From the NCBI RefSeq assembly GCF_009724245.1, contig NZ_WNNK01000003.1, positions 248,001 through 312,000 on the forward strand: 64,000 nucleotides of DNA. The letters run 5' to 3'. A program made the position numbers and the translations under genes. The DNA is from Pseudomonas spelaei. GTDB lineage: Bacteria; Pseudomonadota; Gammaproteobacteria; Pseudomonadales; Pseudomonadaceae. The notes beneath the pieces were generated by a model that saw only the letters and a list, made by a program, of their open reading frames with translations, was not told where the DNA came from and made no database searches. Of this stretch, positions 53,346 through 64,000 are shown one piece after another (within the stretch, counting starts at the first letter, position 1; every line of letters starts with the position of its first letter).

Positions 53346-54674
53346 CTATGGCTCGCGAGTAACGGTGCCCGGTCCTTCAGTACAGCCTGGTTCATTGCGC
53401 ACCCTGATCATACTGCTCTCGAGCATACCCTCAAGCACAAGTCTGGCTGATTCCTGCTTCCCGTAATGAGCGGCCACATAGGCTTGCAGCAGATCGGTGA
53501 AGTCCTGGGCAATACCCGGCCCTTTGAGGGTCGCGACACGTTCACCGTCCATGTACACCGGCGCCGACGGGTTCTCCCCAGCGCCTGGCAGGGAAATACC
53601 GATGTTGGCCAACCGGCTTTCTCCGGGGCCGTTCACCACGCAGCCCATGACCGCCACGTGCATATGCTCGACACCGGGATACAGACCTTTCCAGACCGGG
53701 GTTTGCACCCGCAGAAACGCCTCGATCTGCTGCGCCAGTTCCTGGAAGAAACTGCTGGTGGTACGGCCGCAGCCGGGGCAAGCGACTACGGAGGGGGTGA
53801 AAGCGCGCAGGCCCATGGTTTGCAGAATCTGTTGTGCAACCAGCACTTCGCGGTTGCGGTCGCCGTTGGGCTCCGGGGTGAGGGAAATGCGCAAGGTATC
53901 GCCGATACCTTCCTGCAACAGCACCGCCAATGCGGTGGAGGAGGCGACGATGCCTTTGGAGCCCATGCCAGCCTCGGTCAGCCCCAGGTGCAGTGGAAAT
54001 TCGCAGCGCGCGGCCAGGTTGCGGTACACCGCGATCAAGTCCTGCACATGGCTGACCTTGGCTGACAACACAATGTGATCCGCCGGCAGGCCGACTTCGA
54101 TAGCGCGGTAGGCGTTTTCCAATGCCGAGACCACCAAGGCCTCGCGCATGACTGCATCCGCGCTCAGCGGCTGGGAGAGCATTGCGTTGGTGTCCATCAT
54201 GCGTGCGAGCAAGTCGGGATCAAGGCTGCCCCAGTTCACTCCGATCCGCACCGGTTTGTCGTAGCGGCAGGCGATCTCGATCATGTTGCAAAATTGCTCG
54301 TCGCGTTTGGCGCCTTTGCCGACGTTGCCGGGGTTGATGCGGTACTTGCCCAATGCGTCGGCGCATTCAGGGTAGGCCGCAAGCAGGCGATGACCATTGA
54401 AGTGGAAGTCACCCACCAACGGCACATTGATGTTGCGTCGGTCCAGCAGTTCTCGAATGTTCGCGACCTGCGCGGCAGCGTCATGGCTATTGACCGTGAT
54501 CCGGACCATTTCGGCACCGGCCAGCGCCAGGCTTTCGACCTGCCGCGCCGTAGCCTGGGCATCGGCGGTGTCGGTATTGGTCATGGCTTGCACGACGATC
54601 GGATGATCGCTGCCCAGTGCCACCGGGCCGATGGTGACTTGCGTGGTGCGACGTCTGGGGATTGCACGGTTCAT
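53346..54674 (-). CDS. ispG: 4-hydroxy-3-methylbut-2-enyl diphosphate synthase, long form, second-copy type
   Basis: Radical-forming 4Fe-4S enzyme converting MEcPP to HMBPP, 442 residues. The TIM-barrel half carries INPGNVGKGAKRDEQF and RIGVNWGSLD; cluster cysteines lie in VACPGCGRTTS and AVMGCVVNGPGES. The length and the NPGNVGKG/ VACPGCGRTTSSFFQELA blocks match betaproteobacterial (Burkholderia-like) IspG as I recall it, not the shorter form of about 370 residues resident in pseudomonads. So this is probably an extra, acquired copy dedicated to the terpenoid operon. It is last in the eight-gene run, 26 bases after ispH. Confidence 0.93.
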   Translation of the reverse strand: MNRAIPRRRTTQVTIGPVALGSDHPIVVQAMTNTDTADAQATARQVESLALAGAEMVRITVNSHDAAAQVANIRELLDRRNINVPLVGDFHFNGHRLLAAYPECADALGKYRINPGNVGKGAKRDEQFCNMIEIACRYDKPVRIGVNWGSLDPDLLARMMDTNAMLSQPLSADAVMREALVVSALENAYRAIEVGLPADHIVLSAKVSHVQDLIAVYRNLAARCEFPLHLGLTEAGMGSKGIVASSTALAVLLQEGIGDTLRISLTPEPNGDRNREVLVAQQILQTMGLRAFTPSVVACPGCGRTTSSFFQELAQQIEAFLRVQTPVWKGLYPGVEHMHVAVMGCVVNGPGESRLANIGISLPGAGENPSAPVYMDGERVATLKGPGIAQDFTDLLQAYVAAHYGKQESARLVLEGMLESSMIRVRNEPGCTEGPGTVTREP

Positions 54675-54700
54675 TGATTCGGCTCCTCTGGGTGCATGCT

Positions 54701-55630
54701 TTACTGGCGCGCAATCAACCCGGTGGGCAAGCGGAATTGCACATGTTCTTCTCGACCTGGCAGGGTCTCGATGTCCAGCGGTTCGATGCGCGCCAGGGCG
54801 GCGATGACATCGTCAATCATGGATTCCGGTGTCGAGGCTCCGGCGGTAAGCCCGACGGTTACCCCTTTGCCAAACCATTCGCTGCACACTCCGCTGCCAT
54901 CGGCGATCAGGTAGCTGGGCTTGCCACGCTCGCCCGCGATATCACGCAAGGTCACGGAGTTGGAGCTTTTGACGCTGCCCACCACCAGAACCAGATCGGA
55001 ACACAGGCTCAGCTCACGTACCGCCGTCTGACGATTTTGTACGGCATAACAGATGTCCCGGGTATCGGGTCCGACTATTTGCGGGTAGCGCTGCTTGAGT
55101 GCTTTGACTACCGCGCGTGTATCGTCGACGCTCAAGGTGGTTTGGGTGAGATAGGCCAATGGCGTGTGCTCGGGGAACGCCAGGGCCTGGACCTCTGACA
55201 CGTTACGCACCACAACGACGGGGGCGGGTATCTGCCCCAACGTTCCAATGATTTCGGGGTGCCCGACTTCTCCAATCAGAATCACCTGATAACCCTTGGC
55301 GGCGTATTGGCGACCATGATTGTGCACCTTGGTCACCAGCGGGCAGGTGGCGTCCAGTACCCGCAACTGCCGCTCACGGGCCTCGCTCTCCACGTCAGAG
55401 GCCACGCCATGGGCACTGAAAATGGTCACTGCGTTTTCGGGCACTTCATCCAGCGTCTCGACAAACCGCGCACCTTGGCTGCGCAGCGTCTGCACCACAT
55501 GCTGGTTGTGTACGATCTCGTGACGCACATACACCGGCGCGCCGAACTGCTCCAGGGCCAGCTCAACCGTTTCGACGGCCCGGACGACACCGGCGCAGAA
55601 GCCTCGGGGTTGGGCGAGGATGACTTTCAT
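54701..55630 (-). CDS. ispH: 4-hydroxy-3-methylbut-2-enyl diphosphate reductase, second-copy type
   Basis: Last MEP-pathway enzyme, reducing HMBPP to IPP and DMAPP; 309 residues. Iron-sulfur cysteines are C12 (RGFCAGV), C96 (DATCPLV) and C194 (RDICYAV), with the catalytic-site TQTTLSVDDTR. The opening MKVILAQPRGFCAGVVRA and the tail GREEHVQFRLP resemble Burkholderia-type IspH rather than the usual Pseudomonas protein, suggesting a transferred paralogue. The start at 55630 has GAGGGA before it; the open frame continuing to 55849 overlaps the Rieske gene. Confidence 0.93.
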   Translation of the reverse strand: MKVILAQPRGFCAGVVRAVETVELALEQFGAPVYVRHEIVHNQHVVQTLRSQGARFVETLDEVPENAVTIFSAHGVASDVESEARERQLRVLDATCPLVTKVHNHGRQYAAKGYQVILIGEVGHPEIIGTLGQIPAPVVVVRNVSEVQALAFPEHTPLAYLTQTTLSVDDTRAVVKALKQRYPQIVGPDTRDICYAVQNRQTAVRELSLCSDLVLVVGSVKSSNSVTLRDIAGERGKPSYLIADGSGVCSEWFGKGVTVGLTAGASTPESMIDDVIAALARIEPLDIETLPGREEHVQFRLPTGLIARQ

Positions 55631-63224: not shown

Positions 63225-63686
63225 GATAACCCCGGCTTTTTTATTGGTGTACAAGTTTAATTGTTTTGTACAAGTGTTGATGGTTAAAGTTAACCGCTTG
63301 TGAAAAAAGTGTGTGATGGCGTGAGCTTGTTGAGGGGTACATTAAGCGAATATTTTTTTGTGGCAAGAGGCGGGCTTATGGTTTTTTGTTGTACTAAAAA
63401 GCTAAGTTATTTCGAATTATGGGTCTTGTAAAAATTCTTCATCTATTCAATTTCAAATTGAAAAGGTTCTAATTTACTTATCGCTATATTCTTATTTCAA
63501 TTTTGTTGAAGCTGTTATGGAAAAGCTTTTTTTGCTTGCTAGCCTACGACAAATGGCCGTCCCGGGACGCCCAGGAAAAACTCAAGGACGACACTTTGAC
63601 CTTTTTCTCTTTTGAGAGTGCGAACTTGTAAAAGTCATTGTCTGGCTTGGTTATGGACTTCCACCTCTGCATCAGGACGACGCGCC
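63225..63686. promoter_or_regulatory. Divergent promoter region of idi-ispA and dxr
   Basis: About 460 AT-rich bases without an open gene. It should hold the promoter of the whole minus-strand terpenoid operon and that of dxr. It contains the direct repeat listed at 63248-63275; the AT-richness peaks at 63340-63540. The dxr ribosome binding site (AGGACG) lies near 63674. I see no certain -35/-10 pair and no riboswitch. Confidence 0.5.
63248..63275. promoter_or_regulatory. TGTACAAGT direct repeat upstream of idi-ispA
   Basis: TGTACAAGT occurs at 63248-63256 and again at 63267-63275, starts 19 bases apart, or about two helical turns. Each contains the palindrome TGTACA. The pair lies 24 to 51 bases upstream of the idi-ispA start, where a regulator could act on operon transcription. 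The binding protein is unknown. Confidence 0.4.
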
Positions 63687-64000
63687 ATGCCGCAACGACT
63701 GCTTGTTCTCGGCTCTACCGGATCTATCGGCGAAAGCACTTTGGATGTTGTTTCACGCAATGCCGACGCGTTTGTTGTTCACGCGTTAACAGCGCATCGA
63801 AATATTGAGAGGCTGTTCAAGCAGTGCCTGAAGTTCCGACCTGCACTGGCCATCGTGAGTGAGCCTCATCACGCCATTGAACTTCAGGCCAACTTACAAT
63901 CAGTTGGACTTAAAACCGAAGTTTACTGTGGTGCACAGGCGCTGTGTACGGCGGCGAGCGCTGCCGATTATGACACCGTGGTGGCGGCTATCGTCGGTGC
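63687..64000 (+). CDS. dxr: 1-deoxy-D-xylulose-5-phosphate reductoisomerase, 5' part
   Basis: Second MEP enzyme (DXP to MEP), cut by the window end after about 104 codons. The N-terminal NADPH-binding motif VLGSTGSIGESTLDVV and the segments VVHALTAHRNIERLFKQC and DTVVAAIVGA identify it. LTAHRN and DTVVAAIVGA recall Burkholderia-type Dxr rather than the resident Pseudomonas enzyme, again pointing to a dedicated paralogue. AGGACG lies about ten bases before the ATG at 63687. It is transcribed divergently from idi-ispA over 460 bases. Confidence 0.9.
   Translation, partial: MPQRLLVLGSTGSIGESTLDVVSRNADAFVVHALTAHRNIERLFKQCLKFRPALAIVSEPHHAIELQANLQSVGLKTEVYCGAQALCTAASAADYDTVVAAIVG

What the first reader, a model, noticed from the sequence alone, without database searches (positions are those of the whole stretch)
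53346..64000. Terpenoid operon with its own isoprenoid precursor pathway and a methyltransferase-cyclase pair
Eight minus-strand genes with gaps of only 25-46 bases encode Idi-IspA, Dxs, C-methyltransferase, terpene synthase, two Rieske oxygenases, IspH and IspG; dxr starts divergently. The first four repeat the gene order of the sodorifen cluster of Serratia plymuthica (IDI, DXS, FPP methyltransferase, cyclase). The Rieske pair and the extra MEP genes are additions that I do not know from that cluster. Inference: a non-canonical, C-methylated C16-type terpene that is then oxidised. Sequence beyond 64000 may hold further genes (ispD, ispE, ispF, regulators, export).
Basis: partly seen in the sequence, partly recalled or inferred. 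Interest (0 to 1): 0.93.

Follow-up and report, generated by a model that had tools for sequence, protein, structure and literature searches.

The report
Methylated terpene cluster with twin oxygenases
A Pseudomonas gene cluster packs second copies of isoprenoid-precursor genes, a gene related to a farnesyl-diphosphate methyltransferase, a terpene synthase gene and two genes related to steroid hydroxylases into one run, and it is predicted to make a 16-carbon terpene that the two oxygenases likely oxidise.

Summary
In detail: eight co-directed genes (53346-63224, gaps 25-46 b) encode Idi-IspA, Dxs, a SAM methyltransferase, a terpene synthase, two Rieske oxygenases, IspH and IspG; dxr is divergent and ends 913 b beyond the window. 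The methyltransferase matches solved FPP-methyltransferases over nearly its full length, keeps 15 of 19 checked SodC active-site positions including the His-Tyr dyad, and falls in the FPP-methylating group I, not the second-methylation group II; a C16 product is the best reading. Both Rieske proteins have complete metal motifs; they resemble the steroid hydroxylase KshA. Their close subfamily is rare (3 of 398 Pseudomonas genomes) and all five copies found there lie in methyltransferase/synthase loci. Collimonas has the same set (without idi) in another order; P. gingeri keeps methyltransferase, synthase and one Rieske gene. The MEP genes are second copies (40-50% identity for the three that were aligned). 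Verdict: real, a new variant of a known kind; product and oxidation untested.

The parts
61809..63224 (-). Idi-IspA fusion: type I isopentenyl-diphosphate isomerase fused to farnesyl diphosphate synthase (471 aa)
   Evidence: Pfam NUDIX + polyprenyl_synt; NCBIfam cut-offs passed by IPP isomerase and FPP synthase models; motifs NTCCGHP, DDLPAMD, DDILD
59948..61771 (-). dxs, second copy
   Evidence: TIGR00204 777.9 bits; another dxs on contig 12; 81% identical to dxs of the G083 cluster
58983..59921 (-). SodC-like FPP C-methyltransferase/cyclase (GTG start, 312 aa)
   Evidence: phmmer to VbFPPMT 24uw E 2.4e-121; 15 of 19 SodC active-site positions kept; group I clade
57827..58936 (-). class I terpene synthase (369 aa), motifs DDTTT and NDPYSFRKE
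   Evidence: Terpene_syn_C_2 E 8.5e-20; motifs; predicted fold matches class I synthases
56730..57785 (-). Rieske oxygenase A (351 aa), KshA-like
55656..56687 (-). Rieske oxygenase B (343 aa), KshA-like
   Evidence: Rieske + KshA_C; metal motifs; separate lineage from A
54701..55630 (-). ispH, second copy
   Evidence: TIGR00216 315.9 bits; 50% to the copy on contig 8
53346..54674 (-). ispG, second copy
   Evidence: TIGR00612 381.4 bits; 40% to the copy on contig 22
63687..64000 (+). dxr, second copy, divergent; continues to 64913 beyond the window
   Evidence: TIGR00243 514.3 bits; another dxr on contig 22
63225..63686 (.). AT-rich intergenic region (38.7% GC) between idi-ispA and dxr, presumably holding both promoters (inferred)
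   Evidence: GC; the consensus scan of the region found nothing above shuffles

Best explanation
By sequence, the run 53346-63224 with the divergent dxr is a sodorifen-type terpenoid cluster, predicted to boost farnesyl diphosphate supply with its own MEP enzymes, to methylate and cyclise it with a SodC-like methyltransferase, to fold the C16 product with a class I terpene synthase, and then likely to oxidise that hydrocarbon with two KshA-like Rieske oxygenases. Shown by sequence: the enzyme families, the active-site residues of the methyltransferase, the metal motifs of the synthase and of both oxygenases, and the recurrence of the set elsewhere. Inferred: (1) Dxs, Dxr, IspG, IspH and Idi-IspA raise FPP; IspD, IspE and IspF would come from elsewhere in the genome. 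(2) The methyltransferase adds one methyl to FPP and closes a ring, giving a presodorifen-type C16 diphosphate; which isomer is unknown. (3) The synthase ionises this diphosphate and makes a polymethylated hydrocarbon or alcohol. (4) Rieske A, probably the obligatory one, hydroxylates that skeleton, and Rieske B acts at a second position or oxidises further. (5) Electrons come from a reductase outside the cluster.
For: Methyltransferase: nearly full-length match to solved FPP-methyltransferases, 15 of 19 SodC active-site positions with the His-Tyr dyad (residues from PMC7862628, passages), group I clade apart from group II. Synthase: invariant D101, R194, N240, S244, E248 and R328 in 21 aligned rows, class I fold. 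Rieske pair: motifs, KshA as the closest sequence and fold. Linkage: the close Rieske subfamily occurs in 3 of 398 Pseudomonas genomes, each with all its copies beside the methyltransferase (Fisher p 3.8e-5 with the own genome left out); 16 Rieske-methyltransferase pairs share a longest-contig length in the protein database against a control mean of 0.30 and maximum of 2. Same set without idi in another order in Collimonas; methyltransferase + synthase + Rieske kept in P. gingeri although only a 40-residue idi remnant is left. MEP genes are second copies.
Against: No product data. No ferredoxin or reductase gene among the cluster genes. SodC residues E42, H45, V273 and W306 are changed. The synthase lacks the third Asp of DDXX(X)D. 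Two of four other methyltransferase genomes found by the methyltransferase searches have no Rieske match nearby (G101, G588), and known products of related clusters are hydrocarbons, so oxidation is not required. KshA-like relatives of the Rieske proteins (35-43% identity and below) also occur without any methyltransferase or synthase match nearby (L009, L010, L017). P. gingeri does without Rieske B.
Confidence: 0.65

Rival explanations
1. The end product is a volatile C16 hydrocarbon, as with sodorifen; the Rieske proteins serve another purpose, such as removing or recycling the terpene, or are not used under most conditions.
For: Sodorifen, chlororaphen and grimophan are hydrocarbons made without Rieske enzymes (PMC6366047 passages; PMC13022886 sections); G101 and G588 have methyltransferase and synthases without a Rieske match nearby.
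Against: The Rieske genes sit in the middle of the run with 41-42 base gaps, and the close subfamily is seen only in such loci in the 398 Pseudomonas genomes searched.
Confidence: 0.2
2. The methyltransferase acts on something other than FPP (for example GPP or a later terpene), so the product is not a presodorifen-type C16 terpene.
For: Substitutions at E42, H45, V273 and W306 relative to SodC; general methyltransferase families also match.
Against: E 2.4e-121 over residues 18-311 of 312 to a chain named FPP-methyltransferase VbFPPMT; the other group I proteins aligned are changed at E42 and H45 too.
Confidence: 0.07
3. A C17 pathway like chlororaphen or grimophan, with a second methyltransferase elsewhere in the genome.
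For: The C17 cluster of Pseudomonas G083 has a similar MEP and Rieske complement.
Against: Only one methyltransferase match at E <= 1e-50 in the genome (a group II protein of G083 scored 2.6e-80 in the same search); the synthase carries DDTTT and not DDMPLG and is 22% identical to the G083 synthase.
Confidence: 0.04

Closest known systems
Sodorifen cluster sodABCD of Serratia plymuthica (PMC6366047 and PMC7862628, passages)
   Same: idi - dxs - FPP methyltransferase/cyclase - terpene synthase, in that order; methyltransferase 56.7% identical to SodC protein P0247
   Different: Here idi is fused to ispA; two Rieske genes, ispH, ispG and a divergent dxr are added; identity of the synthase to SodD was not tested (no SodD sequence in hand)
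sod-like clusters with a Rieske protein in Serratia sp. FS14, P. chlororaphis and B. pyrrocinia (PMC6366047, passages)
   Same: FPP methyltransferase and terpene cyclase with a Rieske protein; modified products suggested there
   Different: The passages name one Rieske protein per cluster and no function; the window has an A/B pair and a fuller MEP set; those clusters were not compared directly here
Chlororaphen/grimophan C17 clusters of Pseudomonas (PMC13022886, sections)
   Same: IDI, DXS, group I methyltransferase; DXR, IspH and IspG in the legend of the cluster comparison
   Different: Those need a group II methyltransferase and a group B synthase with DDMPLG; the window has neither
Gromomycin triterpene cluster (PMC12105684, passages)
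   Same: Several Rieske oxygenases in a terpenoid cluster, compared there with KshAB and proposed as hydroxylases or desaturases
   Different: A hexaprenyl-guanidine triterpene pathway; no FPP methyltransferase in the passages read; sequences not compared here
KshA, 3-ketosteroid 9alpha-hydroxylase oxygenase (PDB 4qdf, 4qdc, 2zyl)
   Same: Domain layout, metal motifs and fold
   Different: About 18% identity over the structure alignment; no steroid context and no KshB-type reductase gene in the cluster

Membership tests
Sodorifen-type (sod-like) C16 cluster | SodC-type FPP methyltransferase/cyclase with His-Tyr dyad | tested here: met
   15 of 19 checked positions kept incl. Y39 and H191; structures of FPP-methyltransferases matched; group I clade
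Sodorifen-type (sod-like) C16 cluster | Adjacent class I terpene synthase with metal-binding motifs | tested here: met
   Next gene; NDPYSFRKE and RY present, Asp-rich motif DDTTT lacks the third Asp; class I fold
Sodorifen-type (sod-like) C16 cluster | Gene order idi-dxs-methyltransferase-synthase | tested here: met
   idi is fused to ispA
Sodorifen-type (sod-like) C16 cluster | Synthase homologous to SodD | not tested
   No SodD sequence in hand; no S. plymuthica name among the 24 hits
Sodorifen-type (sod-like) C16 cluster | Product is a C16 terpene via a presodorifen-type diphosphate | not testable with these tools
   Needs in vitro assay or GC-MS
C17 (chlororaphen/grimophan) cluster | Group I plus group II methyltransferase | tested here: not met
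   One match at E <= 1e-50 in the genome, in group I
C17 (chlororaphen/grimophan) cluster | Group B synthase with DDMPLG | tested here: not met
   DDTTT at 101-105
KshA-type Rieske oxygenase | Rieske domain, KshA_C domain, CxH/CxxH, DxxHxxxxH and Asp ligand | tested here: met
   Both proteins; fold tested for A only
KshA-type Rieske oxygenase | Steroid 9alpha-hydroxylation with a KshB reductase | not testable with these tools
   No reductase gene in the cluster; 'works like a KshA' is claimed, not 'is a steroid hydroxylase'

The most novel reading that the evidence does not exclude
KshA-like Rieske oxygenases are built-in finishing enzymes of many bacterial C16/C17 homoterpene clusters, so the true end products there are oxidised, poorly volatile homoterpenoids, and the hydrocarbons reported so far from such pathways are intermediates; the window's twin-Rieske cluster, with its private precursor supply, would be the fullest form of that pathway.
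Probability: 0.4. Interest if true: 0.68.

Novelty: new variant of a known kind. Interest (0 to 1): 0.47.

Why it matters
Bacterial homoterpenes are a young class, and the products named in the papers seen here (sodorifen, chlororaphen, grimophan) are hydrocarbons. A cluster that keeps two steroid-hydroxylase-like oxygenases next to the methyltransferase-cyclase pair points to oxidised homoterpenoids, a product class that volatile-only analysis could overlook, and to Rieske enzymes that may hydroxylate strained polymethylated skeletons, of use for biocatalysis. The divergent second MEP genes also suggest a ready-made precursor-boosting cassette. What the Rieske genes of sod-like clusters do was left open in 2019 (PMC6366047, passages) and can be tested directly with this set.

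Tried and rejected
C17 reading: rejected, as there is no group II methyltransferase and no DDMPLG motif. Further cluster genes past 64000: after dxr come an autotransporter, a LysR regulator and a GMC oxidoreductase. The benABCD operon as part of the cluster: rejected; its four genes pass the benzoate-pathway cut-offs and lie on the other strand, past a hydrolase gene; BenC as electron donor for the Rieske pair is only a thought. Promoter and terminator scans gave nothing above shuffles. Searches that gave little: Rieske A in a class draw, 1 of 369 genomes, the own one; methyltransferase in the family of the Collimonas genome, 1 of 343, the Collimonas genome itself; methyltransferase on plasmids, 2 records at E <= 1e-30, of which the Streptomyces one was not followed. 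Neighbours of three distant Streptomyces plasmid Rieske genes: two annotated stretches list no methyltransferase-synthase pair (one has a methyltransferase about 7 kb away), the third and the Bacillus and Terrilactibacillus loci gave Rieske matches only. SdmA (4beta-methylsterol monooxygenase) is only a match far below its cut-off. In the structure second look the KshA entries rank first; the absence of other families there proves nothing. Not held and so unseen: the 2023 study of widespread C16 terpenoids in bacteria (Duan et al., seen only in a review's text and reference list) and the 2023 chlororaphen paper (Magnus et al., likewise); they may contain this synthase clade or discuss Rieske genes.
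Full report
Observation. The window is bases 248001-312000 of contig 33 of a 6.57 Mb genome that the genome search places in the same genus as the P. gingeri genome G044. From 63224 down to 53346 on the minus strand lie idi-ispA, dxs, a methyltransferase, a terpene synthase, Rieske A, Rieske B, ispH and ispG, with gaps of 37, 26, 46, 41, 42, 25 and 26 bases and a ribosome-binding-like stretch before 7 of the 8 starts, by eye. 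dxr starts at 63687 on the plus strand across a 462-base, 38.7% GC region and ends at 64913. Catalytic motifs that I recalled for these enzymes are present. The next genes outward are a hydrolase, an AraC regulator and benABCD on one side, and an autotransporter, LysR and GMC oxidoreductase on the other.

Precursor genes are second copies. The genome holds another dxs, ispG (40% identical), ispH (50%), ispA (49%) and dxr. The only other hit to the isomerase part is a NUDIX match of 29%, so idi seems to be cluster-borne. Against the cluster of Pseudomonas G083 the same genes are 81% (dxs), 86% (ispG) and 77% (ispH) identical, which reads as a lineage of cluster-dedicated MEP genes and not as recent copies of the host's own. 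ispD, ispE and ispF were not seen in the cluster and were not searched for in the genome. GC is uneven: methyltransferase 48.9%, synthase 49.0%, Rieske genes 54.6 and 55.6%, MEP genes 57.7-61.6%, which suggests a composite origin.

Methyltransferase. phmmer finds six solved sequences at E <= 1e-70 over almost the full length, among them 24uw, named FPP-methyltransferase VbFPPMT (E 2.4e-121), and 9sm0 (1.3e-129). PMC7862628 (passages) names the SodC active-site residues; protein P0247, which sources name as S. plymuthica and 'sodorifen biosy...', matches 19 of 19 of the positions I checked in the paper's numbering. The window protein keeps 15 of 19, including Tyr39, His191, Trp46, Phe56, Tyr61, Asn219, Asp237, Leu239, Cys241, Asp272 and Glu297; it differs at E42, H45, V273 and W306. 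The eight other group I proteins in that alignment, SodC aside, keep 15-16, and the two group II proteins keep 9. In a 62-row tree (part of the 120 listed hits plus locus proteins) the window protein sits in a 12-row clade (100/97) inside the 59-row group I, apart from group II (100/100). A single methylation of FPP is therefore the expected chemistry; group I enzymes are reported to give alpha- or gamma-presodorifen diphosphate (PMC13022886, introduction and discussion).

Synthase. 24 homologues were found at E <= 1e-30, with source names from Pseudomonas, Collimonas, Lysobacter, Vibrio, Morganella, Streptomyces, Kitasatospora and Nocardia. D101, R194, N240, S244, E248 and R328 are invariant in 21 aligned rows; the Asp-rich motif is DDTTT, without a third Asp. 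PMC13022886 (section 7) gives DDXX(X)D for four groups of its C17-cluster synthases and DDMPLG for the fifth, so the window motif matches neither as written. The predicted structure (pLDDT 92.4) matches class I terpene synthases.

Conservation of the set. Among 398 Pseudomonas genomes the close Rieske subfamily (E <= 1e-60) occurs in 3, with five copies, and the methyltransferase (E <= 1e-50) in 4; the listed handles agree, so I take the two draws to be the same. All five copies lie in methyltransferase/synthase loci. With the own genome left out, both Rieske genomes are among the 3 methyltransferase genomes of 397: Fisher p = 3.8e-5. Other loci: the Collimonas MAG has ispH, ispG, a ferredoxin-reductase-like gene (far below the NCBIfam cut-off) and dxr on one strand, and ispA, methyltransferase (72%), synthase (84%), dxs, a dUTPase_2 gene, two more synthases and two Rieske genes on the other. 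B. cenocepacia has methyltransferase (58%), synthase (41.5%) and two Rieske genes, with no MEP match in 25 kb. Pseudomonas G083 has idi, dxs, methyltransferase I, Rieske, methyltransferase II, a synthase with DDMPLG, Rieske, ispH and ispG. P. gingeri has methyltransferase, synthase, one Rieske gene and a 40-residue idi remnant. Against: G101, whose first locus has the order of the published grimophan cluster, and G588 show no Rieske match in the stretches fetched (19 and 32 kb; a second, broken locus of G101 has none in 19 kb either). In all, Rieske genes flank the methyltransferase in 5 of 7 genomes or records; the four besides the own one were first found with Rieske queries. Counting only genomes that the genus and phylum methyltransferase searches found, own genome excluded, it is 2 of 4 (G044 and G083 with, G101 and G588 without). 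More distant KshA-like genes also occur apart from such loci (L009, L010, L017).

In the protein database, 16 pairs between the 120 listed Rieske proteins (of 484 hits) and the 120 listed methyltransferases (of 224 hits) have the same longest-contig length; shifted-length controls give a mean of 0.30 and at most 2. Ten of the 16 contigs are about 68 kb or shorter; for the six longer ones a shared contig does not mean adjacency. Seven of the 16 involve the 20 best Rieske hits. By the same measure, 7 pairs link the 24 synthase hits to the methyltransferases and none links them to the Rieske list. Rieske linkage is scattered over the methyltransferase tree (15 changes against a shuffled mean of 16.5; 'noR' there only means not known to be linked), so the partnership looks gained and lost repeatedly and is not a mark of one clade.

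What is in print. PMC6366047 (passages) found 28 sod-like clusters in eight groups, names a Rieske protein in Serratia sp. FS14 similar to ones in P. chlororaphis and B. pyrrocinia, and suggests modified sodorifen analogues. PMC13022886 (abstract, sections 5, 7 and 12, term search) lists DXR, IspH and IspG in its Figure 2 legend and has no 'Rieske' in its main text. A search for 'Rieske' with 'sodorifen' in the held library gave 2 papers: PMC6366047 and a SAM review (listing only). PMC12105684 (passages) is a precedent for Rieske enzymes, compared there with KshAB, in a terpenoid pathway. Two key papers are not held (see Tried and rejected), so I do not claim that this locus or synthase clade is undescribed.

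Verdict. The finding is real and its core inference good. It is a variant of the sodorifen-type cluster with an Idi-IspA fusion, a partial extra MEP set (five of the genes up to FPP) and paired Rieske oxygenases. Everything after the enzyme assignments, from FPP methylation to oxidation, is inferred.

Noticed in passing
G000:C20 about 41005-42340 (L053:7005-8340): The same genome carries a second terpene synthase gene with an open frame (332 codons, Terpene_syn_C_2) next to a broken ispG remnant (two fragments, 74-76% and about 50% identical to the cluster ispG); it looks like the relic of another terpene cluster.
   Followed up: partly
window 47673-52491: A benABCD operon (cut-offs passed for BenA, BenB, BenC and BenD) with an AraC-type regulator lies directly beside the terpene cluster on the other strand.
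   Followed up: partly
L058:7089-7868 (Collimonas MAG): A ferredoxin-reductase-like gene lies between ispG and dxr of the Collimonas cluster; it might serve IspG/IspH or the Rieske enzymes.
   Followed up: partly
L058:5096-5809 (Collimonas MAG): A PAP2-family phosphatase gene lies next to dxr in the Collimonas cluster.
   Followed up: no
L008:5914-8940 (Collimonas MAG): A dUTPase_2-family gene and two further terpene synthase genes lie between dxs and the Rieske pair, so this cluster could make more than one skeleton.
   Followed up: partly
L020:9844-15187 (Pseudomonas G083): A C17-type cluster (group I and II methyltransferases, DDMPLG synthase) that also carries two Rieske genes, ispH and ispG.
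   Followed up: partly
L034:9048-13433 (G101:C43): A broken second terpene cluster in the genome that resembles P. grimontii: fragments of methyltransferases, idi and dxr beside two synthase-like stretches.
   Followed up: no
L004:13938-16607 (window about 64937-67606): A large autotransporter gene ends 23 bases from the end of dxr, convergent; no known link to the terpene genes.
   Followed up: no
L031/L032 (G588:C62): In the Mesorhizobium retamae-like genome idi and ispA are adjacent separate matches, followed by dxr; in the window the first two are one fused gene.
   Followed up: partly
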